Below are positions 792 through 20,030 of a DNA stretch of 20,030 nt, one piece after another. Made by a program: the position numbers and the translations under genes. The notes under the pieces are model-generated. The model had not been told where the DNA came from, did no database searches, and worked only from the letters and a program-made list of their open reading frames with translations. Within the stretch, counting starts at the first letter, position 1. Each line of letters starts with the position of its first letter. Origin of the DNA: Anaerolineae bacterium (GTDB lineage Bacteria; Chloroflexota; Anaerolineae; B4-G1); the NCBI GenBank assembly GCA_030612185.1, contig JAUWOI010000016.1:1-20030 (forward strand). Direction: 5' to 3'.

Positions 792-812
792 AGAAATCGA
801 TTATCGATTTCT
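792..812. promoter_or_regulatory. Perfect palindromic operator (site 1) at the cupin promoter
   Basis: Two ten-base arms, AGAAATCGAT and ATCGATTTCT, flank a single central T and are perfectly complementary. The site sits directly downstream of the cupin -10 hexamer, about at the expected transcription start. A related copy lies at the mirror position by the gntR promoter. Size and symmetry suit a dimeric GntR-family regulator, most simply the one encoded next door. Confidence 0.75.
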
Positions 813-2090: not shown

Positions 2091-2112
2091 ATCGCGACAC
2101 GGAGGAATGGTT

Positions 2113-5650: not shown

Positions 5651-6673
5651 ATGGTTAAAGTTGGAGTCTTTGGCTATGGCACTATCGGCACACGGCTTGC
5701 CGATGGCGTGGCTTTGCAAAAAGATATGGAATTGGTCGGCGTGGTGGACGTGGCGCCGACGCTGGCTGTGCGGGCGCTTCACGAGAGCGGCATGGCTCAC
5801 GACCTGTACCTGGTGGATATGGCTCGCAAGCCTCAGTTTGACGAACTGGGTATCCCGGTGACGGGCAGTATGGATGATCTGTTGGAGCAAGTAAACGTTG
5901 CCCTGGACGCCACCCCGGCCGGCATTGGGGCCAAGAACAAGATGCTCTACGAAAAGCACGATGTCAAAGCTATCTTCCAGGGCGGCGAGAAGAATGAAAT
6001 CGTCGACGTCTTTTTCCACGGTTATGCCAATTACGAAAGAGGTCTCGGCCAAACCTTTTTGAAACTGACCTCGTGCAACACCACCGGCCTGATCCGCGCT
6101 GTGGACGCCATCGACCGTCTGGTTGGTGTGGAAAAGATCGCCATCACCATCGTCCGTCGCGTGGCCGACCCTGGAGATACGCATCGCGGCCTGACCAACG
6201 TGCTCAAGGTGGACAAGGTGCCCAATCACCAAGCAGTGGATCTGATGACCATCATGCCCCACGTGGAGGCGACCGGCTTCCTGGTACACACGCCCGTGAC
6301 ACACGGTCACATTATCAGCATCGTCGCTACGCCGAAAAATAATGTCAGCAAGGAGACGCTGCTGGATACCTTCCGTGAACACCCGCGCATCCGCGTTGTG
6401 CGCATTGCCGATGGCTTTAACTCTAATGCGGCGCTGTTCAAATACGCCCGCGACCTGGGCAACAAGCGAGGGGATATGTACGAGATTGCTGTATGGGAAG
6501 AGTGCATTGGTTTCTCCGGCAACGATATCCTGTTTGCGATCAACATCCCGCAAGAAGCGGTGACGATTCCTGAGACGGTGGATGGCATCCGTGCCTGCAT
6601 GAGCATGCAAACAGACCGTCTCAAAGCCGTTGGTCTGACCAACCAGTATCTGGGGATGGAATCGGGTCGCTGA
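5651..6673 (+). CDS. gap: Type II (archaeal-type) glyceraldehyde-3-phosphate dehydrogenase
   Basis: A 340-residue NAD(P)-dependent phosphorylating aldehyde dehydrogenase. The Rossmann fold starts at once with VGVFGYGTIGTRLAD (4-18; GYGTIG 9-14 region). QGGEKNE lies at about 110-116, catalytic C142 in SCNTTGL (141-147), VRRVADPGDTHRG near 168-180, and a C-terminal WEECIG segment. The pattern and length match archaeal class II GAPDH across the whole protein rather than the bacterial gapA class. It normally interconverts glyceraldehyde-3-phosphate and 1,3-bisphosphoglycerate. AAGGAGA precedes the ATG. The next gene is an archaeal-type PGK, so the two steps are coupled. An operon-embedded, archaeal-type copy suggests a dedicated role, possibly on another phospho-aldehyde, and likely horizontal transfer. 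Confidence 0.9.
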   Translation: MVKVGVFGYGTIGTRLADGVALQKDMELVGVVDVAPTLAVRALHESGMAHDLYLVDMARKPQFDELGIPVTGSMDDLLEQVNVALDATPAGIGAKNKMLYEKHDVKAIFQGGEKNEIVDVFFHGYANYERGLGQTFLKLTSCNTTGLIRAVDAIDRLVGVEKIAITIVRRVADPGDTHRGLTNVLKVDKVPNHQAVDLMTIMPHVEATGFLVHTPVTHGHIISIVATPKNNVSKETLLDTFREHPRIRVVRIADGFNSNAALFKYARDLGNKRGDMYEIAVWEECIGFSGNDILFAINIPQEAVTIPETVDGIRACMSMQTDRLKAVGLTNQYLGMESGR

Positions 6674-6730: not shown

Positions 6731-7978
6731 ATGGAAACTGGAACTCTCACCCTGGACGATTTTGATTTTCGCGGCAAGACGGTCATCCTGCGGGTGGACA
6801 TCAACTCGCCAATTGACCAGCAGACCGGCAGACTGGCCGACGATAACCGCATCCGCAAGAGCGTGCCCACCATCCGCGAGTTGTCGGACACGGGCGCGCG
6901 GACGGTCATCCTGGCTCACCAGGGCGACACTGAGGACTACAAGAGCCTGGTCTCGTTGCTACCTCACGCCGAGCGGCTGGCCGAATTGCTGGAGCGCCCG
7001 GTCGATTTCATCGACGACATTGCCGGGCCGTCTGCCATCGAGCGCATCCAGGCGCTGCAAAATGGCGAATTACTGCTGCTCAACAACGTGCGCTACCTGA
7101 CCGAAGAGGTGTCCACCTTTACCAAATTTGTCAAGCTCATGCCAGAGCAGATGGCTCAGACGCGGCTGGTGCGCAACCTGGCCCCACTGGCCGACGTTTT
7201 CGTCTGCGAGGCCATTGCCGCTGCCCACCGCTCAGCGCCGTCGTTGATCGGCTTTGCCGAGGTGCTCCCAGCGGCGGGCGGACGGCTCTTTGTAGACGAG
7301 TTGAGCGCGCTGACGCGCATCAAAGAGTCGCCTGTGCAGCCCTGCGTCTTTGTACTGGGCGGTAGCCGCATCGCCGACGCCTTTAGCATGATGGAACAGG
7401 TACTCTGTGAGGGTACGGCCCATCGCGTCCTCACCAGCGGGTTGACTGGCGAGGTGATGCTCCTGGCCCAGGGAGTCAAATTGGGCGAAACGACCGAACG
7501 ATTGATCCACGACAAGGGATTATGGCCGTTCATTGACAAGGCACGCGCCCTACTGGATGCCTACGGCGAGCGCATCCTCTTTCCCTCCGACTTTGCCATA
7601 GATGATGGTGGACGGGTAGAGATCGGGTTGGACGACTTGCCCGCGGACGATCTACTGGTGGATATCGGCGAGCAGACCATTGCTTGCTACATTGAGGTGC
7701 TCCAAGGCGCGGCGACTATTTTCGTGAACGGCCCGGCCGGCGTGTACGAGCAACAGGTCAGCGCAATAGGCACTGAGAAGCTATGGACGGCCATCGCCGA
7801 TGCCCCCGGCTACTCGGTCATTGGCGGGGGCGACAGTGTGGCTGCTGCCGGTCGCTTTGGCATCCGCGAGCGGATGGGCTACGTCTGCACTTCTGGCGGT
7901 GGGATGGTACGCTTCTTGTCGGGGCAAAAGCTGCCGGTGGTCGAGGCACTGCGGCGGGCAGCCCAGCGGTGGGGGTAG
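6731..7978 (+). CDS. pgk: Phosphoglycerate kinase homologue, archaeal type
   Basis: A 415-residue two-domain kinase that would move phosphate between an acyl phosphate and ADP. Recognisable blocks: VILRVDINSPI (18-28), VILAHQGD (59-66), LLNNVRYL (116-123), AAAHRSAPSLIGF (163-175), VLGGSRIADAF (208-218), IFVNGPAGVYE (330-340), GGGDSVAA (365-372) and CTSGGGMVRFLSG (386-398). The RVDINSPI and AHQGD forms are those of archaeal PGK. The usual nucleotide-site Lys in GGxK is Arg here (R213), so specificity or direction may differ from glycolytic PGK. The start is ATG 6731, with GAGGT upstream; an in-frame TTG at 6686 lies in the hairpin and is rejected. It partners the preceding type II GAPDH and is followed ten bases later by the larA-like gene. 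Confidence 0.85.
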   Translation: METGTLTLDDFDFRGKTVILRVDINSPIDQQTGRLADDNRIRKSVPTIRELSDTGARTVILAHQGDTEDYKSLVSLLPHAERLAELLERPVDFIDDIAGPSAIERIQALQNGELLLLNNVRYLTEEVSTFTKFVKLMPEQMAQTRLVRNLAPLADVFVCEAIAAAHRSAPSLIGFAEVLPAAGGRLFVDELSALTRIKESPVQPCVFVLGGSRIADAFSMMEQVLCEGTAHRVLTSGLTGEVMLLAQGVKLGETTERLIHDKGLWPFIDKARALLDAYGERILFPSDFAIDDGGRVEIGLDDLPADDLLVDIGEQTIACYIEVLQGAATIFVNGPAGVYEQQVSAIGTEKLWTAIADAPGYSVIGGGDSVAAAGRFGIRERMGYVCTSGGGMVRFLSGQKLPVVEALRRAAQRWG

Positions 7979-7988
7979 GGGTTGGGTA

Positions 7989-9254: not shown

Positions 9255-9256
9255 CC

Positions 9257-10450
9257 ATGAATGAACCCTCAACAATAACTGCAGATTACCCCCTGACAAC
9301 CGCCCGTAACCGGCAGATGTTAATCGCCCTGTACACCGTGGTTGCCTTGATGTATTGGATGGCGTTGTACCTGTACGTGCCGACTCTACCGACTTATGTC
9401 CAGAGCAAGAGCGATAGCTTGTCGCTGGTGGGCGTGATTCTTGCCCAGTATGGCCTGTGGCAGGCTGTCATCCGGCTGCCGCTAGGCATTGCTGCCGATT
9501 GGTTGGGCTGGCGCAAGCCGTTCATTATCGCCGGCATCGCCCTGGCCGGACTGGGCGCCTGGATCATGGGCACCACAGATAGTGCGGGCGGAATGGCCGT
9601 CGGTCGGGCCATCACAGGACTGGCCGCCGGTACTTGGGTACCGCTGACTGTGGCTTTCAACGGCTTGTTCCCGGCCCAGGAAGCTATTCGGGCCACGGCC
9701 ATTCTCACCTTCGTCGGATCTATCGGACGGGTGACTGCCACCAGCGTCACAGGCTCGCTCAACGAGCTGGGTGGGTACTCGCTGGCCTTTTTTACGGCCA
9801 CTTGCGCCGCAGCGCTGGGTGTATTCGTTGCGCTGATGTCCAAGGAGCGGTCCCAGCCACTGCGACGTCCATCTGTAGCGGGAATCAGTCACCTGATTAC
9901 ACGTCGCGACGTGCTGCTGCCCTCTCTACTCGCGGCGGTCAGTCAATACGCCAACTGGGCCGTTACGTTTGGCTTTCTGCCGATTCTGGCCGGGCAACTG
10001 GGTGCGACAGACGTTACACTGAGCGTGTTGATGAGTATGCACATCGGCGTAGTCACCGTTATGACACTGGCGGCTGCCGCCATTGTCAACCGCATCGGCA
10101 CTCGGCGCCTGGCATTCGTTTCCTTCGCGCTCATGTCTGGAGGGATCGGGCTGGCTGCTTGGACCCCCTCGCTGGCATTCGTCTTTGTCGCGCAATTCTG
10201 TATAGGGGCCGCTCAAGGCTTTAGCTATCCGGTTCTGATGGGTATGAGCATCCGCGACGTGGCCGACGGCGAGCGTAGCACAGCGATGGGGCTACACCAA
10301 GCGGTGTATGCCATCGGCATGTTCGCTGGTCCATGGCTGAGCGGCCTGCTGGCCGACGCTACAGGTATCCGGCCGATGTTCGGCATGACGGCGTTCGCCT
10401 GCCTCGCCATCAGCGTGTTCTTGATTCGCTTACTGCCCAGAAAACAGTAG
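9257..10450 (+). CDS. Major facilitator superfamily transporter, 12 membrane segments
   Basis: A 397-residue inner-membrane protein with about 12 hydrophobic segments in two halves. The first segment starts near residue 22, and the central cytoplasmic loop lies near 194-212. MFS motif A is clear after segment 2: LGIAADWLGWRKP at about 76-88. A second version of this loop (NRIGTRR) follows in the C-terminal half. The ATG lies two bases after the larA stop, so translation is coupled and the protein most likely imports the substrate of this operon. Such single-gene MFS proteins usually carry organic acids, sugars or sugar acids with protons, or export drugs; sequence alone does not decide. It is the last gene of the plus-strand operon. 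Confidence 0.9.
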   Translation: MNEPSTITADYPLTTARNRQMLIALYTVVALMYWMALYLYVPTLPTYVQSKSDSLSLVGVILAQYGLWQAVIRLPLGIAADWLGWRKPFIIAGIALAGLGAWIMGTTDSAGGMAVGRAITGLAAGTWVPLTVAFNGLFPAQEAIRATAILTFVGSIGRVTATSVTGSLNELGGYSLAFFTATCAAALGVFVALMSKERSQPLRRPSVAGISHLITRRDVLLPSLLAAVSQYANWAVTFGFLPILAGQLGATDVTLSVLMSMHIGVVTVMTLAAAAIVNRIGTRRLAFVSFALMSGGIGLAAWTPSLAFVFVAQFCIGAAQGFSYPVLMGMSIRDVADGERSTAMGLHQAVYAIGMFAGPWLSGLLADATGIRPMFGMTAFACLAISVFLIRLLPRKQ

Positions 10451-10563: not shown

Positions 10564-11643
10564 TTACCATACGTCCGGGCCGTACTCCACGCTCTTTTCC
10601 CAGTTCATCCGCTCGCGCCAGTCAGGGTAGACGTAGCGTTCCATGTCCATATCGGTGGGGTGCTCGTAGCGCGCGCCAGCAAACAGGGTGACGGTCCGCA
10701 GGTCAATTTGCTTCTCCTTGGCTTTGCGGGCGACGATGTATTCCAAGTAGGACGGATCTTCGTAGCAATTGGCCCAGTTGTCGTGGTGCATGGGAATGAC
10801 GACCTTGGCATTGAGCGCCTCAGAAATGCGCCACAAATCCCAGGGTGACATCTTGTCGGTATAGCCGGGGGCATTGTTGCCCATATTCATGGTGCACACG
10901 TCGATCTGGTACTTTTCGCCCACCATGCGGTAGCCGTTATGGTACAGCGTGTCGCCCAGGAAAGCGACGTTGCCGCCCTCAGTGTTGAAAATAAAGCTGG
11001 TGGCTACCTCTTCAAAAGGCGCGGGTGTGTCGAAACCGGTCTTGGTGGCGATGACGTCAAAGTTGGGCGCAAAGTCGATACGCATATCCTCGATTTCGAC
11101 GTACTCGCCGACTTGTGCGATGATCATCCGATCATCCGGCACGCCCATGTTTTTCTTCATCCGCCGGGCGGCCTCGGGCGGGGCGATGAATTTGCAATTG
11201 GTGGTCTGGAGCGCGGCGCTGATGGTGTAGAAGTCCATGTGATCCTGATGGTGGTGGGTGACGCACACCGCGTCCAAACGCTTGAACTTCCAGGGGTCGA
11301 TGACGTGGGGATTGAGGCGCATCCACCACAACTTGTCGGTACCGCTGGTGCGGCAGACACCACAGTAAGAATAGTCGGTAAAGATGCTGGGGCCGGCGTA
11401 CAGATCCACGGTGAACACTGCCCCGCCCCGCGACTTTAAAGCCCAGGATGGCCCGCCAAAATACCACATCACCCCCGTGCCGGGCTTGACGTCAAAGTGC
11501 TCGATCTCATAGTTAAGAAAGGTTCCCCATTCGGGAAATACCTCCTGCAGCCAGATGTCGCGTGTCATCTCGCGCGGCAGGCCGATGGTTCCGCCGTCCA
11601 TGACGCCCATTTCGTCGTACTTGACAACCTTATTTTCGCTCAT
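10564..11643 (-). CDS. ulaG: UlaG-family metal-dependent lactonase (beta-lactamase fold)
   Basis: A 359-residue metallo-beta-lactamase-fold hydrolase similar along its whole length to L-ascorbate-6-phosphate lactonase UlaG. Shared features: FPEWGTFLNYEIE (36-48), the metal-binding THHHQDHMD (129-137; H130, H132, D134, H135), FLGDTLYHN and the late ITDKM-type segment (here YTDKMSPWDLWRISEALNAKVVIPMHHD). UlaG opens a phosphorylated sugar lactone. No other ula genes (3-keto-gulonate-6-phosphate decarboxylase, epimerases, PTS) are present, so a different lactone or phospho-lactone is more likely than ascorbate. AAGGGGA precedes the ATG. It is the last gene of the minus-strand operon, 74 bases after ilvD. 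The family is firm; the symbol denotes the family, not ascorbate use. Confidence 0.85.
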   Translation of the reverse strand: MSENKVVKYDEMGVMDGGTIGLPREMTRDIWLQEVFPEWGTFLNYEIEHFDVKPGTGVMWYFGGPSWALKSRGGAVFTVDLYAGPSIFTDYSYCGVCRTSGTDKLWWMRLNPHVIDPWKFKRLDAVCVTHHHQDHMDFYTISAALQTTNCKFIAPPEAARRMKKNMGVPDDRMIIAQVGEYVEIEDMRIDFAPNFDVIATKTGFDTPAPFEEVATSFIFNTEGGNVAFLGDTLYHNGYRMVGEKYQIDVCTMNMGNNAPGYTDKMSPWDLWRISEALNAKVVIPMHHDNWANCYEDPSYLEYIVARKAKEKQIDLRTVTLFAGARYEHPTDMDMERYVYPDWRERMNWEKSVEYGPDVW

Positions 11644-11692
11644 TATTTTCCCCTTTCATCTATTTGTTTGTCAATCGTCAAGTTGATACACG

Positions 11693-11722
11693 GGTAGGTT
11701 GGGCAATACGTCCCAATCTACC
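11693..11722 (-). repeat. Hairpin overlapping the ilvD stop codon
   Basis: GGTAGGTTGGG (11693-11703) and CCCAATCTACC (11712-11722) form an 11-position stem with one imperfect pair and an eight-base loop. It overlaps the ilvD stop codon (TAG at 11720-11718). The outer bases (GTAGG) recall the repeat arm that overlaps the MFS stop codon. In mRNA it could shield the ilvD 3' end or reduce read-through into ulaG. Confidence 0.55.
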
Positions 11723-13385
11723 ATTCCTCTCTCAGAATCGCCCCCGCGCTCGCCGACGTTACCATCCGCGCATAACGGGCCAGGTAGCCATGCTTTACCT
11801 TGGGTTCAGGCGGGGTCCAGTGGGCGCGGCGACGGGCGATCTCGGCTTCATCGACCTCCAGGGTGAGAGTCCGGTTGGGGATGTCGATATGGATGGTGTC
11901 GCCCTCCTCGACCAGGGCCAGCAGGCCGCCCTCGGCTGCCTCAGGCGAGATGTGACCGATGGCCGCGCCGCGCGTCACGCCAGAGAAGCGCCCGTCGGTG
12001 ATTAGCGCCACGTCCTCGCCCAGGCCCATGCCCACAATGGCCGACGTGGGCGCCAGCATCTCGCGCATACCTGGCCCACCCTTTGGCCCCTCGTAGCGGA
12101 CGACGACCACGTCCCCCGGCTGGATGCGGCTGCCCAAGATAGCGTCGACGGCGTCCTCTTCGCAGTCAAAGACACGGGCCAGACACCGTCGCTGGCGCAT
12201 AGCGGGCGCGACGGCCGCCTGCTTGACCACCGCCCCGTCGGGCGCTAGATTGCCGGTCAGGATGGCGATACCGCCTTCGGAATGGACCGGCCGGTCAAAG
12301 GGGCGGATGATCTCCTCGTCGCGGATTTCGGCTGTTGCCAGATCCTGGCCCAGCGTCTGGCCGGTGGCGATCAGAACGTCGAGATCGACCAGGTCCCGCT
12401 CGGCCAGGCGCTTCATTACCCCTCGCACACCTCCCGCCCGGTCGAGGTCGTCCAGATGGTGGGGGCCGGCTGGGCTCATGTCGCACAGATGGGGCACGCG
12501 GTCGCTCACCTCCTGGAACAGGCTCTGGGGGATGGGGATATCGGCTTCGTGGGCAATGGCCGGCACGTGGAGGATGGTGTTGGTCGAGCAGCCCAGGGCC
12601 ATGTCCACGGCGATGGCGTTCATGAACGCCTGGCGCGTGGCAATATCGCGGGGCCGGATCCCTTTCTCCAACAATTCCATGACCTTCAGACCAGCCAACT
12701 TGGCGAGCCGCACCCGCGCCGCGTTGACCGCCGGGATGGTGCCATTGCCCGGCAAGGCTATCCCCAGGGCCTCTGCCAAACAGTTCATCGAGTTGGCAGT
12801 GAACATGCCGGCGCAGGAGCCACAGCCGGGGCAGCAGACCTTTTCCAGCTCAACCATCTCTTCGCCGGTCATGGTCCCAGCCGTGACTTTCCCGATCCCC
12901 TCCCAGACGGTGGTTAGATCAGTTTCACGGCCGCGCCAGTCTCCGGCCAGCATCGGCCCGCCGCTAAGCATCACCGCCGGGATATTGAGCCGCAGCGCGG
13001 CCATAAGCATACCCGGAGTGATCTTGTCACAGTTGGTGACCATCACCAGGGCGTCGAAGGGATGGGCCATAGCCATGATCTCCACCGAGTCGGCGATGTG
13101 CTCCCGGCTGGCCAGCACGTACTTCATACCCTCGTGGCCCATGGCCAGCCCGTCACAGATGCCAATGGCAGGAAAGACCACCGGCGTGCCGCCCGCCATC
13201 GCCACGCCTCGCACTACGGCGTCCACCAGGTTGTTGAGGTGGATGTGGCCGGGGACGATCTGGTTGAAGGCGTTGACCACGCCGACGATGGGCTGCTCGA
13301 TCTCGCGCCGGGTATAGCCCATCGAGTAGAGTAGCGCCCGGTGTTGGGCCCGCTTGAGCCCCTTTTTCATCTCGTCACTTCTCAT
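11718..13385 (-). CDS. ilvD: IlvD/Edd-family dehydratase (dihydroxy-acid or sugar-acid dehydratase)
   Basis: A 555-residue iron-sulfur dehydratase that removes water from a 2,3-dihydroxy acid to give a 2-keto-3-deoxy acid. Visible: cluster cysteines C119 in [10 protein letters not shown] and C191 in [19 protein letters not shown] at 76-79, KHGY-type C-terminal region, and [10 protein letters not shown] near 475-485 with the catalytic Ser. At the first cluster position the usual Cys is Gly (VPGHIHL, G46), as in a known subgroup of IlvD homologues. AGGAGGG precedes the ATG. The family covers branched-chain amino acid synthesis and sugar-acid catabolism. No other ilv gene is nearby, while BKACE, RLP and a lactonase are, so I favour a catabolic sugar-acid dehydratase. 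The symbol marks the family only. Confidence 0.88.
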
Positions 13386-13440
13386 ACTGTTCCCTCCTAT
13401 AGGTGCTCCCGCTGGACTGTCGTCCGCGTCGAGTAGAAAT

Positions 13441-14310
13441 CTATTCCCGAGGCAATCTCAGGATCTGACATGCCTCTTGCGGCGTGGCTGGGTCGCGCCC
13501 CGCGATGCGGGCGATCTGCACCGCTTTTTCCACCTGGTCCCAGTTTCCCTTGGATTTCGTCTTGGTCAACGGGTCGATGTAGACGTTGTCCTCCAATCCG
13601 ACGCGGATGTGGCCGCCAAAGATGGCGCTGGCCATCGCCACTGGGAAACAGTTCTGCCCGGCCCCGATGCCCTGCCAGGTTGAGTCTGGTGGGATAGCGT
13701 GGATGTAGCTGTTCACCATATCCGAGTTGAAGCGTACGCCGCCCATCACCCCAAAGACGAAGGAGAAATGCAGCGGCGCCACGAGAAAATCATAGTGCTC
13801 GAAAAAGAACATAGCGTTGTGGACGTGGGACAGGGCAAAGCACTCAATCTCAGGCTTGATCCCCTTGTCACGCATCAATGTGCCGAACTCCAGCGTGGCC
13901 CCGAGTGGGTTGTGATAGGTCTTGTCGTGGATGATACGGCCATCCCGGTAGCTGACAGTGCAAAAGTTCATCGTGCCTGGGTTCAGCGAGGCTATCTCCG
14001 GGTCGTGGTGGACGATGGGGCGCTTGCGCTCCTCTAGCGTTGACTCCAGGCTAACGCCGGTGCTGAGGTTCAACAGCAAGCCGGTGTTTTCCCGGATGCC
14101 CTCGACCACCTCTTTCATAACCACCGGGTCGGTCGTCGGTGTGCCGCTGACCGGGTCGCGAAAGTGAATGTGGACGACCGCCGCGCCGGCCTCCTCAGCT
14201 CGTACTGCCTCGCGGACAAACTCCTCGGGCGTGTAGGGCACATTGGGGTTGTGCTCCTTCATGGTCACGCTGCCAGAGAGCGCTGCCGTAATGATGACTT
14301 TCTTCTTCAT
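13441..14310 (-). CDS. Beta-keto acid cleavage enzyme (BKACE, DUF849)
   Basis: A 289-residue TIM-barrel zinc enzyme. The family condenses a beta-keto acid with acetyl-CoA and releases acetoacetate plus the CoA ester of the shortened acid (first known as 3-keto-5-aminohexanoate cleavage enzyme, Kce). Zinc ligands H47 and H49 are in VHIHFRD (46-52) and E240 in RVGLEDN (236-242), at the expected spacing. The N-terminal strand [24 protein letters not shown] (7-30) is typical. GAGAGGA precedes the ATG. It lies 16 bases after a 3-hydroxyacyl-CoA dehydrogenase-family gene, an arrangement known in carnitine degradation, where the dehydrogenase makes the beta-keto acid that BKACE cleaves. The acyl substrate is not predictable by eye. 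Confidence 0.92.
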
Positions 14311-14326
14311 GTTTGTCCTCTCTCTG

Positions 14327-15283
14327 CTACCGCTTCTGTATCTCTCGAATCAACATCAACTGCCGGACAAAGTACAGATCGCGATTGCGCAGGATCTCGT
14401 CGCGGGCATCAGCCTCGTACTGGTAAAAGCCTTCACCGGTCTTGATGCCCAGATTGCCCTCCTCGACTAGCCGGTCGAAAAACTCGGGCGTGGTCTGCAT
14501 GGTGCTTAGAGCCGGCAACAGATACTGGGCCACGCTGTGAAATGTATCCAGGCCACCTAGATCGGCTGTCTCCAGAGGACCAAGCCATGGATAGCGAAAG
14601 CCCACGCCGTTTTTGAGTGTGCGGTCCACATCCTCGGGACTGACGATGCCAGCCTCCACCATGTGCAAGGCCTCGCGTAGGACGGCGAACTGGAGCCGGT
14701 TACTGGCAAAGCCCGGTACGTCCTTCTTGACCACAACCGGCACCTTACCCAGTTTTTCCGTGACGCGGTAGATCACGTCCACCGTGTTGTCCGAGGTCTG
14801 TTCGCCGCGGATTACTTCCACCAGCGGCACGATCTCGGCCGGGTTAGCCCAGTGCATACCCCCCACTCGCTCGGGATGCTGGCAGACCGAGGCGATGACG
14901 GTGATACTCAATCCCGAGGTGTTGGTTGTCAGGACGGTGTCGGCCGGGCAGAGGGCCTCCATGTCCTGAAAGAGTCTCTGCTTCAGATCCAGTTTCTCCG
15001 GCGCGGCCTCCAGCACGTACTGAACCCCTTCCAAGGCTTCCACCAGCCGAGTCGTGATCGTGATCCGGTTCCGCGCCGCTTTCGCCTCCTGGGCCGAGAT
15101 CAGATCCTCTTCAATGAACACACGTTGGCTGTTCTCGATGCGGGACAGCGCCCAGTCGAGTTGCTCTGGCTTGATGTCGTACAGGGCCACCTCATAGCCG
15201 GCCTGGGCAAAGCACATGCTCATCCCGGCCCCCATTGTCCCGGCTCCCACCATTGCCATCCGCCGAACCTCTTCAAATCGCAT
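14327..15283 (-). CDS. 3-hydroxyacyl-CoA dehydrogenase-family oxidoreductase
   Basis: A 318-residue NAD-dependent dehydrogenase. The N-terminal Rossmann domain shows VGAGTMGAGMSMCFAQAGYEV (about 12-32) and an acidic residue shortly after in LYDIKPE. NTSGLSIT carries the conserved Ser. The catalytic segment reads GMHWANPAEIVPLVEVI. The C-terminal all-helical dimerisation domain includes DVPGFASNRLQ and GVGFRYPWLGPLE. In classical fatty acid enzymes the catalytic segment reads GxHFFNP; the HW-x-NP form is nearer to carnitine dehydrogenase and other free 3-hydroxy acid oxidisers. GAGGAGG before the ATG at 15283 fixes the start; an in-frame ATG at 15322 lies inside the upstream gene and is rejected. 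Its position between the AbfD-like gene and BKACE suggests it makes the beta-keto acid for BKACE. Confidence 0.88.
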   Translation of the reverse strand: MRFEEVRRMAMVGAGTMGAGMSMCFAQAGYEVALYDIKPEQLDWALSRIENSQRVFIEEDLISAQEAKAARNRITITTRLVEALEGVQYVLEAAPEKLDLKQRLFQDMEALCPADTVLTTNTSGLSITVIASVCQHPERVGGMHWANPAEIVPLVEVIRGEQTSDNTVDVIYRVTEKLGKVPVVVKKDVPGFASNRLQFAVLREALHMVEAGIVSPEDVDRTLKNGVGFRYPWLGPLETADLGGLDTFHSVAQYLLPALSTMQTTPEFFDRLVEEGNLGIKTGEGFYQYEADARDEILRNRDLYFVRQLMLIREIQKR

Positions 15284-15298
15284 AAGTCGACCTCCTCG

Positions 15299-15340
15299 AA
15301 CCCTAAATCTCGAATTCCCCAATCCCTAATATCCTCTTCA
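15299..15340. repeat. AT-rich repeat-like tail at the 3' end of the abfD-like gene
   Basis: The 3' end of the abfD-like gene and the bases before the next ribosome site carry CTAAATCTCGAATTCCCC and CAATCCCTAATATCC in tandem-like form. This resembles the dispersed GGGATT/AGGGATT intergenic repeats of environmental genomes. It supplies the last residues and stop codon. A similar spacer (CCCAAATATCGAATACCG) precedes the E1alpha gene near 3554-3571. Confidence 0.3.
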
Positions 15341-16763
15341 CCAGATTCATCTTCTCTTCCACATTCCCCTGCCGCCCGATCATAATCCGTTGGGCCATAG
15401 GTGATCCCGCACCATGCATAGACTCGATCAGGTAAGCCACCGCTCCGGATCCAACCACCAGGTTCTCGATGAGGCGCATAACCTTCACCCGGTCTATAGG
15501 GTCGACGCCTTCGGCAGCGACCATGTACTTTTTGATATAAGGTCCTACCTCTGGATCGTCCAACTCACCAGCCGAGGGCAGCGTGCCCAACAGGCCGCCG
15601 GCCACGTCGGTCGCCAGCCGGGCCATTTCGTAGGGGAAGCGAGTCACATTCAGCTTGCAAACGTTGGCCAGCAGCAAGTCGACCAGGTAGTTACCAGCGG
15701 GCGTCGGCTGTCCCCGCGCCGAGCAGGCGATGCCACAGGCGAACAGCGTCTCGTTGAGGTGGATCATCTCTACGATCTTGTCACGAATGTGGGAGGCGCG
15801 AGCCACACCGTTCATCTGGCCGATGAGGGCCGTCGCACCGATGAGCACGTCGCCGACGCCTACCTTGCAGCCACCGTAGCTCTGGCGGTGATAGGCGGCA
15901 AACTGCTCCACCAGCGGGCCACTGTGGCCCACCTCGCCATCGAGAAAGATGCGCTCCGCCGGGACGAACACGTTGTCAAAGACAGTCAGCACCTCCTGGC
16001 CACCGAAGGTAGGGTTGCCCACGTCCAGAGAGTTCCCCTCCATCTTGCGCGTATCGCTGGCCTGCCGACCTAGGATGTATCGAATCCCCTCTGTGTTCGT
16101 CGGTACAGCAAAGCAGATGGTCCAGTTCTCCTCGCCCGGCCGCAGGGCCAGGGTGGGCATAACCAGAATCTCGTGGGAGTTGATCATACCGGTCTGGTGG
16201 AACTTGGCACCGCACACCACCACACCATCGGACCGCCGATCCACGATCCGTAGGTAAAGGTCGGGGTCAGACTGCTCGCTCGGTCGCTTGCCCCGGTCCC
16301 CCTTGGGGTCGGTCATAGCTCCGTCCACCACTAGATCCTCACGCTGTACCCAGGCCCAGTAGTCACGGAAGCGCTGGTGATAGTTGGTACCGTGGCCTGC
16401 ATCGCACTCATAGGTCGTGCTAAAGATAGCGTTGGCCGCATCCATCCCCACGCAGCGCTGGAAGCAGCAGCCAGTGAGATTGCCACAGTGGCGCTGCATA
16501 AGCACTTTGTTCACCAGGTCATCGGGACTCTGGTGCAAGTGAGTGAAGCGATTGACCTCGTCGTCGATGAGGGGTGAGTAGACACGGAACAGCGCGCCGC
16601 ACTTGTCATCGTGGGCGCAGTCGTAGGTCACTGCCACAGCACGCAGCGAGGGACGGACCAGGGCGTGTCCGGTCAGGTCGCCGGTCCGCTCACCCAGGAT
16701 GTTGGCCTCCAGTCCCAACGACTTGATGGAAGCGACGTACTCTTTACCGGTCTTGAGCGCCAT
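15303..16763 (-). CDS. abfD: 4-hydroxybutyryl-CoA dehydratase/vinylacetyl-CoA isomerase homologue
   Basis: A 486-residue flavoprotein with a [4Fe-4S] cluster, matching AbfD of Clostridium aminobutyricum along its length. The cluster ligands are all present: C100 and C104 in CCFQRCVGMD, H292 and C299 in YHRQSYGGCKVGVGDV (AbfD: C99, C103, H292, C299). DGAMTDPKGDR (147-157), GAKFHQTG (185-192) and ESMHGAGSPMAQRIMIGRQGN near the C-terminus are family blocks. The reaction is radical dehydration of 4-hydroxybutyryl-CoA to crotonyl-CoA. The broader family includes 4-hydroxyphenylacetate hydroxylases, but those lack these ligands. GGAGGAGG precedes the ATG, which lies 20 bases inside the RLP 3' end. 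The gene for CoA activation of the substrate is not in the window, so a related 4-hydroxyacyl-CoA is possible. Confidence 0.9.
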   Translation of the reverse strand: MALKTGKEYVASIKSLGLEANILGERTGDLTGHALVRPSLRAVAVTYDCAHDDKCGALFRVYSPLIDDEVNRFTHLHQSPDDLVNKVLMQRHCGNLTGCCFQRCVGMDAANAIFSTTYECDAGHGTNYHQRFRDYWAWVQREDLVVDGAMTDPKGDRGKRPSEQSDPDLYLRIVDRRSDGVVVCGAKFHQTGMINSHEILVMPTLALRPGEENWTICFAVPTNTEGIRYILGRQASDTRKMEGNSLDVGNPTFGGQEVLTVFDNVFVPAERIFLDGEVGHSGPLVEQFAAYHRQSYGGCKVGVGDVLIGATALIGQMNGVARASHIRDKIVEMIHLNETLFACGIACSARGQPTPAGNYLVDLLLANVCKLNVTRFPYEMARLATDVAGGLLGTLPSAGELDDPEVGPYIKKYMVAAEGVDPIDRVKVMRLIENLVVGSGAVAYLIESMHGAGSPMAQRIMIGRQGNVEEKMNLVKRILGIGEFEI

Positions 16764-18045
16764 TTGCTTGCCCTCCTCCCCAACGTTCTAACGCCTTCCT
16801 CAGTTCCGGGTGCTCCTTTGCCTTGTCCGCTAGTGGAATCCCGGCCACTGCTGCGTCGATGGCCTGGCGCATAGCTCGGCCGCCAGCCGTCGCGCCATCG
16901 GGATGCCCCTGTATGGCGCCACCCACGGCCAGCATCACGTCAAAGCCAATCTCCTCGATGATGCGCACCGCGGTGGCCGGGTGGACCCCACCGCCTACAG
17001 ACGGCATAATTGGCTTGAGGTCGTATAGGGGCATGGTCTGAAAGTGAGCCGTGCGCAGGTACTTTTCACGAAGCAGAGGGTAGGAACTGTAGACCGAGCC
17101 GAACATTGCCACGTCAGCCCCCGCCAGCCGGTTCAGCTTGCCCAGCAGCAGGGGCGAGCTGATGCCGGCCCGCGGATTCTCCACCAGCGAACTGGCCCCG
17201 GCATAGTGACTCAGGATAGGGATGGTGACATTTGGGTCCTCAGCCACAGCCTGGATGACGCCTAACCCAGCACTGACGCCGTTGATCATCACCATACCTG
17301 CCCCCAGTTCCTGGGCACGCCGCGCGTTTTCCACCATCTTTTCGGGCCTGTCGGTGATATTGGGGCAGTAGACGGCCCGGCGACCGGTCTCCTCGTAGAC
17401 CTGCTCGGCCGCCCGGCGACAGGCTGCCACCCGATCGAGCATAGGGCTGAACGAGGTATGGCCCAGCAACTCGTCGTCCTTGATGATGTCCACGCCGCCG
17501 CGGGCCGATTCGGTGAAAAAGGCCGCACCCACTTCCGGGCCAAAGCCGGTGCAGGGTTTGATCATGTTCAATAGAATCGGACGCTTTGGGATGCCAAGAT
17601 GTTCGCGCAGGCCAGCGATGCCGAACTTGGGGCCGCCAAACCCGGCCACAAAGCCAGGTGACAATTGCAGATCTACCAGCTTGAGCTGCGCCGCGGTGGA
17701 GACGTCGTTGCCCAGCAAGGTCGTGAACAGCATGGGGAACTGGGAGCCAAAGTTGACTTGAGGAAAGGCGATCTGGATGAAAAAAGATCTCTTGCCGACA
17801 GGCAGATCGGGCTCGAGTTCGACGGGCGGCACATCGTAGATGGCAACGATGCGGGCCATGTGCCGCTCCAGCATCTCGCGGGTGACGCCTGGCACCGGCG
17901 TCCAGGTTCCCACACTCTGGCCCACAGCGAAAGAGGCTGCTTGGGCCACGATGTCTATTTCGGGGTTGGCCTCCAGGTAGTAGGTAGCGATGATGTACTC
18001 TTTGCCAACGAGGTCTTCAGCGTAGGCAAAGGTAAGGTCATTCAT
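16744..18045 (-). CDS. RuBisCO-like protein (RLP, form IV)
   Basis: A 433-residue homologue of the RuBisCO large chain. The N-terminal domain has AVGQSVGTWTPVPG (40-53) and LLGN (110-113). The TIM barrel carries K163 in MIKPCTGF (equivalent to K175) and GGVDIIKDDE at 183-192, so the carbamylated Lys and the two metal acids (K189, D191, E192) are kept. The residue equivalent to E60 is Gly (G42), HRAMH is HYAGA (280-284), and the loop 6 Lys and H327 are not recognisable (GADVAMFGSVYS, 309-320). It therefore should bind Mg and enolise a substrate but not fix CO2 like RuBisCO. Known RLPs act as enolases, isomerases, or decarboxylases and transcarboxylases in methylthioribose and branched-sugar acid routes. 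It overlaps the upstream gene by 8 bases and abfD by 20, so it is translationally coupled in the operon. Confidence 0.9.
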   Translation of the reverse strand: MNDLTFAYAEDLVGKEYIIATYYLEANPEIDIVAQAASFAVGQSVGTWTPVPGVTREMLERHMARIVAIYDVPPVELEPDLPVGKRSFFIQIAFPQVNFGSQFPMLFTTLLGNDVSTAAQLKLVDLQLSPGFVAGFGGPKFGIAGLREHLGIPKRPILLNMIKPCTGFGPEVGAAFFTESARGGVDIIKDDELLGHTSFSPMLDRVAACRRAAEQVYEETGRRAVYCPNITDRPEKMVENARRAQELGAGMVMINGVSAGLGVIQAVAEDPNVTIPILSHYAGASSLVENPRAGISSPLLLGKLNRLAGADVAMFGSVYSSYPLLREKYLRTAHFQTMPLYDLKPIMPSVGGGVHPATAVRIIEEIGFDVMLAVGGAIQGHPDGATAGGRAMRQAIDAAVAGIPLADKAKEHPELRKALERWGGGQANGAQDR

Positions 18046-19192
18046 GGGTCAACTCCCCGACTCTTTGCTTGAACCCGGCGGCGGCGTCCACCATCGCCAG
18101 GATATTCTCCGGCGGCACGTCTTCTTGGATGTTGTGCACCGGGGCCAGCACAAAGCCGCCGCCGGGCGATAGATCCCCGATGCGTCGCTGCACCTCAGCG
18201 TGGACATCCTCTGGAGATCCCAAGGGCAGAACCCGTTGGGTGTCAATCGCCCCCCAGAAGCAGATGCGGTCGCCAAACTTGGCCTTCAGTTTGGCGGTGT
18301 CCATGCCCGCCGACGAGACCTGGACTGGGTTCAGAGCATCCACGCCAATGTCAATGAACTCCTCAACGAGCGATTTGACCGCCCCGCAGCAGTGGTAGAG
18401 CACCTTGGCCTGCGACTTGGTTTTGATCAGGTCCACCATTCGTCGGTGGCGGGGCTTGAACAGCTTTCGATAGCGGCCCAGGTCGATCATGGGGCGGTCG
18501 TGGAAGGCCACGTCGTCCCCAAAAGCAACGACGTCCACATATGGCCCTACCTCGTCCAGTACCGCGTCCGCTAGTTCCAGCCACCAGTCGAGTGCCTGAT
18601 CCATGAGGGTGTTCAGGAACTCGGGATTGAGGACAATATCCATAAGCCACTGCTCGTAGCCGCGCAGGTACTGGCTGAGGTGTACAAAACCCACCGGCAG
18701 GGAGAGGACCACGGCATAGTTGGTCTCCTCGTGGAGCCGCCGGGCACGCTCGCACAGTCCGCGGGTCCGGCCTGGATTCCGCGGGTCTGGCCAGGAAAAA
18801 TGGTTGAGATCGGCCAAGGTTGCCTCGCGGAGCGGATTACCCGTCGGCGCATAGTGCCCGTCGCCAGCCTTGCGCCAAACCACGCTAAACTCATTGCGGA
18901 ACGAGCCATCGTCAAAGTAGACGTCTTGCCAGCCATCAGGGCCGCCGACCAGGAGCGGGCGGGTATCGGCGTGGAGCCGCTGGGAGACGTGCTCGTCCAG
19001 GATGGCGCTGCGCGACTTGCGCTTCATGTAGCGGGTCTCGCTCTTGATGCCCAGGAGTGTCTTTAGCCGCTCATACGCCTTACCGATGATCGTGCTAAAA
19101 GAACTGCCGCCCACATCGATGGGAACCCGGTCCGGCTCTCGATGCTCGATCGCGGCCAGCACCCGCTGCCGCGGTGTCATGGTCTTTGACAT
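18038..19192 (-). CDS. Uroporphyrinogen decarboxylase/MtaA-family protein
   Basis: A 384-residue TIM-barrel protein of the UroD fold: TPRQRVLAAIEHREPDRVPIDVGG at the start (6-29), FGDDVAFHDRPMID (224-237), YHCCGAVKSLVEEFIDIGVDALNPVQ (266-291) and WGAIDT (313-318). The H-x-C-G pattern (H267, C269) fits the zinc-binding site of corrinoid methyltransferases (MtaA, MtbA, CmuA), not haem-making UroD. No corrinoid protein gene is seen nearby. Such paralogues are common in carbohydrate clusters of anaerobes with unknown roles. The start is ATG 19192 with AGAGG eight bases upstream; a GTG at 19216 is rejected because its putative ribosome site abuts it. It overlaps the RLP gene by 8 bases. Confidence 0.83.
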   Translation of the reverse strand: MSKTMTPRQRVLAAIEHREPDRVPIDVGGSSFSTIIGKAYERLKTLLGIKSETRYMKRKSRSAILDEHVSQRLHADTRPLLVGGPDGWQDVYFDDGSFRNEFSVVWRKAGDGHYAPTGNPLREATLADLNHFSWPDPRNPGRTRGLCERARRLHEETNYAVVLSLPVGFVHLSQYLRGYEQWLMDIVLNPEFLNTLMDQALDWWLELADAVLDEVGPYVDVVAFGDDVAFHDRPMIDLGRYRKLFKPRHRRMVDLIKTKSQAKVLYHCCGAVKSLVEEFIDIGVDALNPVQVSSAGMDTAKLKAKFGDRICFWGAIDTQRVLPLGSPEDVHAEVQRRIGDLSPGGGFVLAPVHNIQEDVPPENILAMVDAAAGFKQRVGELTHE

Positions 19193-19240
19193 ATGACTTG
19201 CCTCTAAGATCGGCACTCCCCGAAGGATTGCCAGTTCTGG

Positions 19241-20029
19241 TTATCTCGCTGTCTCGCGCAGGCGCAAGAAGGTGTCCACGGTGGCGTCGGCGAATTTGCG
19301 GTCGTTGATGTGGGCATCCACTTGGATCAACTCTACGTCCGGCGATAGAGTTTGCTCCATTGCCTCTGCGTAGGCCATGTTGGACGCTTCGTCGTAGAGC
19401 ACCTTGCCCTCTTGGTTCAACATGCTAAAGCCGCGCAAGGGAATCATCACCGCCCGAGGTCCGCGCCCCTCATTCAGCCGCTCGGCCATGTAACGAGCCA
19501 CGGCGGCCATCTCCTCGGCGCTGGTTCGCACGTGGGTGTGGGTTGGCGTATGCTGCACGCAGGCCCGGCTGCGCAGTTCCTCCGGCACCTCCTCAAGACG
19601 CCCATGAAGCCTGATGTCGGTTGCGCCAGGGGTCACGATCTGCGGGATTCCCATCTGGCCGGCAGCTTCCAGGCGACCGGGCATAGCCGGCATCAGCCCG
19701 CCATACAGATGGTCAGTGATCTCGTGGGGTGAGAAATCGATGACGCCGCTGACCACGCCGTCTAGGATCAACTCCTCCATGGCCTGGCCGCCGATGCCGT
19801 TGCAATGGAAGGCGATAATCTCGAAACCCATCCCCTCCAGCCGCTCTTTGATGGCCATCACGCCCGGGGTGGTGATACCTGCCTGGGTAATGGCCACCAG
19901 TTCGCCTGCCACCTCTGCAGCGCCCTCGACTGAGGCCATGCCGATGACGGCGGCCGCTGCCTGGGCCAGGATGCGCTCTGTCACCCGGTTCAATCCCAGA
20001 ATGTCGGCCACTGAGTGGATCATTGTGAT
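19241..20029 (-). CDS. Tm-1-like (UPF0261) protein, C-terminal part; 5' end off the window
   Basis: The last 262 or so residues of a protein of the Tm-1-like/UPF0261 family, continuing past the right edge (the frame is open from 20029). The segment reads ITMIHSVADILGLNRVTERILAQAAAAVIGM at the edge, then FHCNGIGGQAMEELI, VSGVIDFSPHEITDHLYGG, and IVTPGATD, all typical of the C-terminal domain; the ATP-binding N-terminal domain (full proteins are about 400 residues) is missing from the window. An ATG at 20023 is internal. In plants and bacteria the family is known from the tomato Tm-1 virus-resistance protein, and the bacterial role is unclear; it is often found with TIM-barrel catabolic genes. 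It is 48 bases upstream of the UroD-like gene and is the first gene seen of the minus-strand operon. Confidence 0.85.
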   Translation of the reverse strand: MTMIHSVADILGLNRVTERILAQAAAAVIGMASVEGAAEVAGELVAITQAGITTPGVMAIKERLEGMGFEIIAFHCNGIGGQAMEELILDGVVSGVIDFSPHEITDHLYGGLMPAMPGRLEAAGQMGIPQIVTPGATDIRLHGRLEEVPEELRSRACVQHTPTHTHVRTSAEEMAAVARYMAERLNEGRGPRAVMIPLRGFSMLNQEGKVLYDEASNMAYAEAMEQTLSPDVELIQVDAHINDRKFADATVDTFLRLRETAR

Positions 20030-20030
20030 A

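What the first reader, a model, noticed from the sequence alone, without database searches (positions are those of the whole stretch)
10564..20030. An eight-gene operon pairing a RuBisCO-like protein with AbfD-, BKACE-, IlvD- and UlaG-family enzymes
Seen: eight minus-strand genes with short gaps or overlaps (UroD-like/RLP 8 bases, RLP/abfD 20 bases). Known: RLPs act in branched-sugar acid and methylthioribose routes, BKACE cleaves beta-keto acids, AbfD dehydrates 4-hydroxybutyryl-CoA, UlaG opens phospho-lactones, IlvD dehydrates sugar acids. Inference: together they form one catabolic route from a lactone or sugar acid to acetoacetate/acetyl-CoA and an acyl-CoA. I do not recognise this set from any characterised pathway, including methylthioribose, apiose-type or carnitine routes. 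This is the leading candidate for an undescribed system.
Basis: partly seen in the sequence, partly recalled or inferred. Interest (0 to 1): 0.88.

Follow-up and report, generated by a model that had tools for sequence, protein, structure and literature searches.

The report
Unstudied RuBisCO-like breakdown pathway genes
A bacterium related to the Chloroflexota carries a set of neighbouring genes, built around a cousin of the carbon-fixing enzyme RuBisCO, that several related genomes keep and that seem to share a control switch, most likely to break down an unidentified sugar-like acid or lactone.

Summary
The eight co-directional minus-strand genes are real; seven are complete and one is cut by the window edge.

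The set recurs. UPF0261-UROD-RLP-HCDH-BKACE-IlvD-UlaG is collinear in two other Chloroflexota genomes. In three more, UROD-RLP and HCDH-BKACE-IlvD-UlaG lie on separate contigs, yet both are present. A sixth, G360, has fragments. AbfD is optional. Parts of the convergent plus-strand operon (GntR, E1/E2, LarA; GAPDH and PGK in two of six) recur in the same genomes. A rare palindrome, ATCGATWATCGAT, lies by the regulator gene, before the unlinked HCDH block (three genomes) and before the RLP operon (one of five genomes), which suggests a shared GntR regulon.

The RLP lies outside MtnW and OiaX and lacks the RuBisCO loop-6 lysine. Best reading: a carbohydrate-acid or lactone catabolic pathway in which UPF0261 is the kinase feeding the RLP, with a BKACE arm. 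Co-occurrence is shown; substrate and reactions are inferred.

The parts
19241..20029 (-). UPF0261 protein (Tm-1-like), C-terminal 262 aa, 5' end beyond the window; proposed ATP-dependent kinase (inferred)
   Evidence: PF23189 244 bits, PF06792; homologues 77-81% identical in L001/L032; solved relatives of the L032 homologues are Tm-1 and Saro_1862 with bound acetovanillone
18038..19216 (-). UROD/MtaA-superfamily protein
   Evidence: PF01208 93.8 bits; HxC kept (H265, C267 in the numbering); His where MtaA 4ay7 has Cys near the end
16744..18045 (-). RuBisCO-like protein; metal/carbamate site kept, loop-6 Lys missing
   Evidence: PF00016 154.5 bits; residue table; trees
15303..16763 (-). AbfD-type (4-hydroxybutyryl-CoA dehydratase/vinylacetyl-CoA isomerase) enzyme, optional member
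   Evidence: 604 bits to 1u8v; C100, C104, H292, C299 kept; no match in G001, G002, G360
14327..15283 (-). 3-hydroxyacyl-CoA-dehydrogenase-type NAD enzyme (HCDH); best solved relative is FHMPC dehydrogenase 4om8
   Evidence: PF02737 199 bits; orthologues 69-77% in 5 of 5 genomes
13441..14310 (-). beta-keto acid cleavage enzyme (BKACE)
   Evidence: PF05853 283 bits; HIHFRDP and GLED motifs; 79-85% orthologues in 5 of 5 genomes
11718..13385 (-). IlvD, canonical dihydroxy-acid dehydratase type
   Evidence: TIGR00110 765.8 bits against cut-off 618
10564..11643 (-). UlaG-like metallo-beta-lactamase-fold lactonase
   Evidence: 220.5 bits to L-ascorbate-6-phosphate lactonase, below cut-off 306; 190 bits to 3bv6; HxHxDH present
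955..1647 (+). GntR/FCD regulator, proposed regulator of the set
   Evidence: PF07729, PF00392; orthologues 64-81% in 6 of 6 genomes
795..809 (.). palindromic operator candidate AATCGATTATCGATT
   Evidence: exact match to the pattern that was read from it; same palindrome at the same place in L142
916..930 (.). second operator copy, 2 mismatches
   Evidence: counterpart in L142 at 12401
2107..3528 (+). 2-oxoacid dehydrogenase complex E2 (listed by the ORF tool from 1927)
   Evidence: PF00198; below the NCBIfam cut-offs listed
3587..4627 (+). 2-oxoacid (pyruvate-type) dehydrogenase E1 alpha
   Evidence: PF00676; TIGR03182 347 bits against 394
4643..5629 (+). 2-oxoacid (pyruvate-type) dehydrogenase E1 beta
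   Evidence: PRK09212 387 bits against 321
5651..6673 (+). type II glyceraldehyde-3-phosphate dehydrogenase; found in 2 of 6 related genomes
   Evidence: PRK04207 397 bits against 185
6731..7978 (+). phosphoglycerate kinase; near full length in G004 and G042, a 64-residue match in G001
   Evidence: PF00162 338 bits
7989..9254 (+). nickel-dependent malate racemase, LarAH6 type
   Evidence: NF052593 536 bits against 500
9257..10450 (+). MFS transporter
   Evidence: PF07690
360..782 (-). cupin protein, divergent from the GntR gene; orthologue near GntR in three related genomes (G001, G002 with one gene between, G360)
   Evidence: PF07883

Best explanation
The window holds most of one catabolic pathway for a carbohydrate-derived acid or lactone, probably under one GntR regulator, made of three modules. 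(1) UPF0261-UROD-RLP (preceded in relatives by a lactonase, a second UPF0261 with a second UROD and/or a DhnA-type aldolase, and in G001 an SDR): a hydroxyl of the intermediate is phosphorylated by UPF0261, and the RLP uses its Mg-carbamyl-lysine site to enolise or isomerise this mono-phosphorylated compound. (2) HCDH-BKACE-IlvD-UlaG: lactone opening, dehydration of a 2,3-dihydroxy acid, oxidation of a 3-hydroxy acid, and BKACE cleavage of the 3-oxo acid with acetyl-CoA into acetoacetate and an acyl-CoA; in some lineages AbfD dehydrates that (4-hydroxy)acyl-CoA. (3) The plus-strand operon: the E1/E2 complex makes acetyl-CoA (or an acyl-CoA from the 2-oxo acid that IlvD makes), LarA racemises malate, and in some members GAPDH and PGK take up triose phosphate released by an aldolase. 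Shown: gene content, order, co-occurrence, shared palindromes, catalytic residues of RLP and AbfD. Inferred: all reactions, their order and the substrate. My estimates: one pathway 0.8; one regulator for all modules 0.55; carbohydrate-type substrate 0.6; UPF0261 as kinase 0.55; the exact steps above 0.1. The confidence given is for the outline without exact steps.
For: Gene order kept in L001 and L032 and, with modules split over contigs, in G003, G004, G042. Close RLP (67% identity or more) in 5 of 396 class genomes and UlaG in 6 of 396, all 5 RLP genomes among the 6; the sixth, G360, has an RLP fragment 64% identical. GntR orthologue in 6 of 6; E1 alpha, E1 beta and LarA genes follow it in G001, G004, G042 and G360, E2 in the last three. 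Exact core palindrome only 2, 2, 2, 3, 3 times per whole genome, reversed-pattern control 0; 9 of 12 sites lie in pathway loci, including about 170 bases before HCDH in 3 of 3 genomes with the split arrangement and just before the RLP operon in G001. The RLP keeps the K175, K201, D203, E204, H294, G380, G381, G403 equivalents. Among 81 RLP loci, 37 have UPF0261, 32 an FGGY kinase, 0 both. Saro_1862, a UPF0261 protein, was solved with bound acetovanillone. In 13 UPF0261-RLP loci the recurrent neighbours are ABC transporter parts, TIM, class II aldolase, lactonase-type and PEP_hydrolase proteins, with no kinase family among the 25 commonest of 85 families (rarer ones were not shown).
Against: No substrate or activity is known. 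No palindrome copy was found in the RLP-operon loci of G002 (L001, L111), G003 (L003, L103), G004 (L002, L104) and G042 (L105) at up to 3 mismatches. 3 of 12 exact sites lie where I recognise no pathway gene. GAPDH was found in 2 of 6 genomes, PGK near full length in 2 of the loci compared, no E2 match in the G001 locus, and in G002 only the GntR of the plus-strand operon was seen. So the triose-phosphate arm is weak. The UPF0261/FGGY exclusion rests on about 4 and 3 changes and is not significant on the tree. IlvD is of the canonical branched-chain type. The E1/E2 set could be an ordinary pyruvate dehydrogenase. The aldolase was seen in 2 of 81 loci. The G404 equivalent of the RLP is Ala and S379 is Gly in 13 of 13, so the phosphate site is not wholly conserved. 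A UPF0261 relative binding a phenolic compound could point to an aromatic substrate.
Confidence: 0.45

Rival explanations
1. A methylthioadenosine (methionine-salvage) operon: the RLP is an MtnW-type enolase or a DeepYkr-type isomerase acting on methylthio-sugar phosphates.
For: Best NCBIfam matches of the RLP are the two MtnW models (345.5 and 318.5 bits); MtnW is the closest reference in the tree without long branches. A cupin gene (360-782) is near the regulator, and a cupin enzyme works beside the DeepYkr RLP in R. palustris (PMC5893883, passages).
Against: Below both cut-offs, 409 and 513.6. The position of the MtnW lysine at the N123 site is Asn in 12 of 13 clade members. No gene annotated corresponds to mtnK, mtnX or the dehydratase of the mtnW locus L112. 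The cupin is 16 kb from the RLP. BKACE, IlvD and lactonases have no place in that route as I know it. A DeepYkr reference was not placed in the tree.
Confidence: 0.08
2. Two independent pathways: UPF0261-UROD-RLP does one job and HCDH-BKACE-IlvD-UlaG another, merely neighbouring in one lineage.
For: They are on separate contigs in G003, G004, G042; UPF0261-RLP occurs widely without module 2 (37 of 81 loci have UPF0261, 2 of 81 have IlvD); the palindrome precedes HCDH there but was not found before the RLP operon.
Against: In the class sample the two modules occur in the same genomes even when unlinked, and the palindrome precedes the joint operon in G001 and the separate HCDH block in three genomes. 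The genomes are related, so the naive P of 8e-11 overstates this.
Confidence: 0.2
3. An aromatic or methoxyl-aromatic route: UPF0261 phosphorylates a phenol as for acetovanillone, UROD is a demethylase component, and HCDH/BKACE cleave an aryl beta-keto acid.
For: Saro_1862 (UPF0261) with bound acetovanillone; acetovanillone routes start with a kinase and pass a beta-keto acid (PMC13101465, passages); UROD is in the MtaA/CmuA superfamily; in G003/G004 module 2 adjoins a pterin-binding methyltransferase, RACo and a CODH/ACS delta subunit.
Against: No biotin carboxylase or ring-opening gene among those annotated in the window. The neighbours of UPF0261-RLP loci elsewhere look of sugar type. Lactonases and the RLP are not explained.
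Confidence: 0.12
4. A fermentative amino-acid type route (lysine or gamma-aminobutyrate like) with AbfD and BKACE as core enzymes and the RLP incidental.
For: BKACE scores best with the lysine-fermentation Kce model (240 bits); AbfD residues are intact.
Against: 240 bits is below the cut-off of 382; no AbfD in G001, G002, G360; no aminotransferase, aminomutase or ammonia-lyase among the genes annotated in the window.
Confidence: 0.05

Closest known systems
MtnW, 2,3-diketo-5-methylthiopentyl-1-phosphate enolase (e.g. 2oek, 2zvi; L112)
   Same: RLP fold; carbamate lysine and Asp/Glu metal ligands; G381 and G403 equivalents kept
   Different: Score below both curated cut-offs; Lys at the N123 site replaced by Asn; sister to, not inside, the 43-row clade that holds the window RLP (97/93); no methionine-salvage neighbours annotated
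OiaX and acid-sugar-kinase-linked RLPs (3-oxo-isoapionate-4-phosphate decarboxylase; L113, L114, L116, L120)
   Same: RLP working beside a kinase in sugar-acid catabolism
   Different: 193 bits against a cut-off of 700; separate branch of the tree; a four-carbon acid sugar kinase there, UPF0261 here
L-carnitine-type module: 3-hydroxyacid dehydrogenase plus BKACE (recalled)
   Same: Adjacent HCDH and BKACE genes suggest oxidation of a 3-hydroxy acid followed by acetyl-CoA-dependent cleavage
   Different: Carnitine 3-dehydrogenase scores 145.7 bits against a cut-off of 592; IlvD and UlaG are added
4-Hydroxybutyryl-CoA dehydratase (1u8v; AbfD)
   Same: Fe-S ligand positions kept
   Different: Sits in an RLP operon; substrate unknown; optional
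UPF0261 / Tm-1 / Saro_1862
   Different: Next to UROD and RLP rather than a PEP_hydrolase barrel; activity untested
UlaG, L-ascorbate-6-phosphate lactonase
   Same: Homologous to solved UlaG structures, metal motif present; 190 bits to 3bv6
   Different: 220.5 bits against a cut-off of 306; no PTS or other ula genes annotated in the window

Membership tests
MtnW (DK-MTP-1-P enolase) | NCBIfam equivalog score above cut-off | tested here: not met
   345.5 against 409 and 318.5 against 513.6
MtnW (DK-MTP-1-P enolase) | Lysine at the N123-equivalent position (its catalytic role is recalled) | tested here: not met
   Asn in 12 of 13 clade members, Ser in 1
MtnW (DK-MTP-1-P enolase) | Methionine-salvage gene neighbourhood | tested here: not met
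   none among the genes annotated in the window, compared with L112
OiaX | NCBIfam equivalog score above cut-off | tested here: not met
   193.1 against 700
RuBisCO superfamily (form IV / RLP) | Carbamate Lys, Asp, Glu kept while loop-6 Lys is lost | tested here: met
   K201/D203/E204 kept in 13 of 13, K334 position S/R/T/H
Carboxylating RuBisCO (forms I-III) | Loop-6 Lys334 and Lys177 | tested here: not met
   K334 lost, K177 is Cys in 13 of 13
DeepYkr RLP (methylthioribulose-1-P isomerase) | Phylogenetic placement with R. rubrum/R. palustris RLP1 | not tested
   no such sequence was at hand; an RLP beside methylthioribose genes (L119) was a very long branch
BKACE | Pfam PF05853 above cut-off and metal/active-site motifs | tested here: met
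   283 bits; HIHFRDP, GLED
4-hydroxybutyryl-CoA dehydratase | Three Cys and one His binding [4Fe-4S] (ligand identity recalled) | tested here: met
   C100, C104, H292, C299 align with 1u8v
4-hydroxybutyryl-CoA dehydratase | Activity on 4-hydroxybutyryl-CoA | not testable with these tools
   needs an enzyme assay
Dihydroxy-acid dehydratase (IlvD) | TIGR00110 / PRK00911 cut-off | tested here: met
   765.8 against 618; 809 against 644
L-ascorbate-6-phosphate lactonase UlaG | NCBIfam equivalog cut-off | tested here: not met
   220.5 against 306
Malate racemase LarAH6 | NCBIfam equivalog cut-off | tested here: met
   536.3 against 500
MtaA/MtbA methyltransferase | HxC...C zinc site (motif recalled) and equivalog cut-off | tested here: not met
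   HCC kept, third Cys is His; 69.9 against 400
UPF0261 | Pfam N- and C-domains, common fold | tested here: met
   (fold tested on the L032 orthologue)
Small-molecule kinase (MarK-like) | ATP-dependent phosphorylation | not testable with these tools
   MarK is called a single-component kinase in PMC13101465; that MarK is Saro_1862 is my inference

The most novel reading that the evidence does not exclude
UPF0261 is a kinase family that supplies RuBisCO-like proteins with their phosphorylated substrate in place of FGGY or four-carbon acid sugar kinases, and this is a previously undescribed route in which one GntR regulator joins a phosphorylated RLP arm with a CoA-dependent arm (3-hydroxy acid to 3-oxo acid to acetoacetate plus acyl-CoA), with a radical 4-hydroxyacyl-CoA dehydratase recruited in some lineages.
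Probability: 0.32. Interest if true: 0.82.

Novelty: new variant of a known kind. Interest (0 to 1): 0.65.

Why it matters
RLPs are a test case for how new enzyme functions arise from RuBisCO, and the RLP clade met here has no assigned role that I could find. A clade with conserved partners, a predicted regulator and a candidate binding site becomes testable. It also offers a concrete role for UPF0261, a family best known through the tomato virus-resistance gene Tm-1, and links RLP chemistry to CoA-dependent beta-keto acid cleavage.

Tried and rejected
Rejected: MtnW or OiaX identity, ordinary RuBisCO, chance adjacency. AbfD as a core member was dropped, then partly restored as a recurrent option by the contig-length comparison: RLP and AbfD lists (the best 120 rows of each) share 5 longest-contig lengths of at least 4 kb, the window's own included, against a mean of 0.33 and a maximum of 2 over 120 shifts; RLP and HCDH share 10 against 0.21 (maximum 3).

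Papers: PMC5893883, PMC6302742, PMC7325909, PMC5028733 and PMC13101465 were seen as passages found by term; PMC11837543 and PMC12607616 likewise, with nothing relevant; PMC12167813 as abstract and opening text; the others only as search listings. The MarK paper (J Biol Chem 301:110606) was not held; I know it only from its citation and one sentence in PMC13101465. Carter 2018 and Zhang 2016 were not read (mentioned within PMC6302742 and PMC7325909).

Rows dropped: L024 was left out of the tree (a stop in the matched stretch); 13 rows, including three long references, were left out of the second tree; 24 of 70 loci with short flanks were left out; of 144 ORFs listed, 119 went into (left out: 13 RLPs, 10 UPF0261 proteins, 2 others). 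The class and phylum samples were drawn from larger groups. Gene calls in related loci come from my own simple ORF scripts.

Full report
1. What is there. The window carries two convergent operons. The minus-strand one is the finding: eight genes from 20029 down to 10564, seven complete and UPF0261 cut by the edge, each with a Pfam match above cut-off. The plus-strand one, 955-10450, encodes a GntR/FCD regulator, the E2, E1 alpha and E1 beta parts of a 2-oxoacid dehydrogenase complex, a type II GAPDH, PGK, a LarA-family racemase and an MFS transporter. NCBIfam places the GAPDH (397 bits against 185) and the racemase (LarAH6 malate racemase, 536 against 500) above cut-off; E1 alpha and E2 stay below the pyruvate dehydrogenase cut-offs, while E1 beta passes a subfamily model. 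The MFS stop (10450) and the UlaG stop (10564) face each other, so the promoter of the RLP operon probably lies beyond the window.

2. The enzymes one by one. The RLP scores best with MtnW models but below their cut-offs, and far below that of OiaX. AbfD has the three Cys and one His that align with the iron-sulphur ligands of 1u8v. The dehydrogenase at 14327-15283 is closest among solved structures to FHMPC dehydrogenase 4om8 (213 bits) and is below the listed NCBIfam cut-offs. BKACE has its family motifs but passes no specific equivalog. IlvD is of the canonical dihydroxy-acid dehydratase type. The last gene is UlaG-like but below the UlaG cut-off. UROD keeps HxC but has His where MtaA has a later Cys.

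3. The RLP. In an alignment with a form I RuBisCO (L117), MtnW (L112), OiaX (L114), acid-sugar-kinase-linked RLPs (L113, L116, L120) and a Photo-type RLP (L118), the equivalents of K175, K201, D203, E204, H294, G380, G381 and G403 are kept in 13 of 13 clade members; K177 is Cys, S379 is Gly and G404 is Ala in 13 of 13, the loop-6 K334 is lost, and the N123 position (Lys in MtnW) is Asn in 12 of 13. This predicts metal-carbamate enediolate chemistry without carboxylation, on a compound with one phosphate (inference). In the tree the window RLP falls in an 18-row clade (SH-aLRT 99) inside a 45-row set. Without the longest branches, MtnW is sister to the 43 rows that hold it (97/93). No DeepYkr reference was available.

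4. Does the set recur? From genome contigs 80 loci were kept of 508 confirmed. L001 and L032 (Chloroflexota) have UPF0261-UROD-RLP-HCDH-BKACE-IlvD-UlaG in the same order at 76-93% identity, without AbfD; L032 also has E1 alpha, E1 beta, LarA and MFS genes in the convergent place. L002 and L003 have UPF0261-UROD-RLP at 66-73%, without the rest nearby. A search of 396 genomes of the class found the RLP at E up to 1e-120 in 16, of which 5 (G001, G002, G003, G004, G042) at 67% identity or more; UlaG at E up to 1e-60 was found in 6, namely those 5 and G360. HCDH and BKACE orthologues were found in 5 of 5. In G003, G004 and G042 they lie together as HCDH-BKACE-IlvD-UlaG on a contig other than that of the RLP. 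G360 has part of BKACE with IlvD and UlaG, GntR-E2-E1a-E1b-LarA near part of a UPF0261, a lactonase and an SDR, and an RLP fragment 64% identical. The naive probability of the RLP/UlaG overlap is 8e-11, but these genomes are related and are not independent draws.

5. The plus-strand operon in relatives. GntR is in 6 of 6. E1 alpha, E1 beta and LarA follow it in G001, G004, G042 and G360; E2 in G004, G042 and G360, with only its beginning at a contig end in G003. GAPDH was found genome-wide only in G004 and G042 (2 of 6); PGK is near full length there, and in G001 only a 64-residue match remains between E1 beta and LarA. In G002 only GntR, cupin, ADH and molybdopterin-enzyme genes were seen. 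So GAPDH and PGK are not essential members.

6. AbfD. It was not found in G001, G002 and G360 and is on other contigs in G003, G042 and, in two pieces, G004; these are draft genomes. In the protein database the RLP and AbfD hit lists share the contig lengths 4615, 11421, 21523 and 43258 besides the window's own, and two of these (11421, 43258) also appear for HCDH. So AbfD has probably joined the operon in a sub-lineage, not only here.

7. A shared regulator. A palindrome AATCGATTATCGATT lies at 795-809, with a second copy (2 mismatches) at 916-930, between the cupin and GntR genes (the pattern was taken from this sequence). The same pair lies at the same place in G001. The exact 13-base core occurs only 2, 2, 2, 3 and 3 times in the whole genomes of G001, G002, G003, G004 and G042, and the reversed pattern never; about 0.02 per 4 Mb is expected from base composition. 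Of these 12 sites, 9 lie in the pathway loci: by the cupin gene (G001, G002), before the SDR that heads the RLP operon (G001), before HCDH in the unlinked block (G003, G004, G042; about 170 bases upstream), and in the module 3 locus (G004 twice, G042). Three sites (G002:C11, G003:C107, G042:C24) have no recognised link. Against a single regulator: at up to 3 mismatches no site was found in the RLP-operon loci of G002, G003, G004 and G042 (L001, L111, L002, L003, L103, L104, L105), so the RLP operon has it in 1 of 5 genomes; L104 has a UTRA-type regulator gene there instead.

8. UPF0261 as kinase. RLPs of known role act on phosphorylated compounds (recalled), and other RLP loci have an FGGY kinase (32 of 81) or a four-carbon acid sugar kinase. 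No FGGY gene was found near the RLP of the window, L001 or L032, but UPF0261 is there; over all 81 loci 37 have UPF0261 and none has both. On the tree this is 4 and 3 changes, too few for significance. In 13 UPF0261-RLP loci (119 neighbours scanned) the commonest families were PEP_hydrolase (11), BPD_transp_2 ABC permeases (10), ABC ATPases (9), TIM (6) and class II aldolase (5); no kinase family is among the 25 shown of 85. The AlphaFold model of the L032 orthologue (pLDDT 90) matches Tm-1 and Saro_1862 over its whole length; Saro_1862 was solved with bound acetovanillone. PMC13101465 (passages) states that acetovanillone breakdown in the same species, Novosphingobium aromaticivorans, starts with MarK, a single-component kinase. 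That Saro_1862 is MarK is my inference; the MarK paper was not held.

9. How it may work. See Best explanation. The chemical logic is: lactone opening (an AiiA-like lactonase in relatives, and the UlaG-like one), a phosphorylated branch (UPF0261, RLP, in two genomes a DhnA-type aldolase), and a free-acid or CoA branch (IlvD, HCDH, BKACE) using acetyl-CoA from the E1/E2 complex. An alternative order, in which the E1/E2 complex decarboxylates the 2-oxo acid made by IlvD into a 3-hydroxyacyl-CoA for HCDH, is equally open. Loci of the wider family with TIM-like and RpiB-like genes suggest tetrulose- or pentulose-type intermediates in relatives.

10. What is new. Searches of the paper library for RLP together with UPF0261, genome neighbourhoods, apionate, form IV/DeepYkr and DUF1537, and for BKACE with genomic context, and for UPF0261 alone, returned no description of this set that I could see; most hits were seen as listings only, and subscription journals are missing. 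PMC7325909 states that the functions of RLPs close to one found in a related locus type are unknown. I therefore rate it a new variant of a known kind: an RLP-centred catabolic pathway with new partners.

Noticed in passing
window 955-10450: Convergent plus-strand operon (GntR, E2/E1a/E1b, type II GAPDH, PGK, LarAH6 malate racemase, MFS) that belongs with the finding but lies outside its coordinates; GAPDH and PGK are missing in some relatives.
   Followed up: yes
window 795-809 and 916-930: Palindromic GntR-type operator candidate, very rare in related genomes and mostly placed near pathway genes.
   Followed up: yes
L007, L014, L021, L031 and other Syntrophomonadaceae-type loci: A different conserved RLP operon: RLP-PEP_hydrolase-ComB-like phosphatase-UPF0261-PEP_hydrolase; function unknown.
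   Followed up: partly
L036, L045, L050, L068 and relatives: A further RLP clade paired with an FGGY kinase and, in part, a class III aminotransferase or a saccharopine-dehydrogenase-like protein, in Chloroflexota, Bacillota and archaea.
   Followed up: partly
L004 and L006: UPF0261-RLP-triosephosphate-isomerase-like loci (Bauldia, Paenibacillus) with a large gene of one family nearby, a GH38 alpha-mannosidase in L006.
   Followed up: no
L138 and L139 (G003, G004): HCDH-BKACE-IlvD-UlaG follows genes for a pterin-binding methyltransferase, RACo and a CODH/ACS delta subunit on the same strand.
   Followed up: no
L142 and L166 (G001, G002): Molybdopterin-type oxidoreductase subunits and a zinc alcohol dehydrogenase near cupin/GntR, the ADH with its own near-match of the operator; perhaps the first oxidation steps.
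   Followed up: partly
L101/L142 (G001), between E1 beta and LarA: A 64-residue PGK match without GAPDH: looks like the remnant of a deletion of GAPDH and most of PGK.
   Followed up: partly
window 1665-1982: Small plus-strand ORF of 105 aa with coding-like composition between GntR and E2, unassigned.
   Followed up: no
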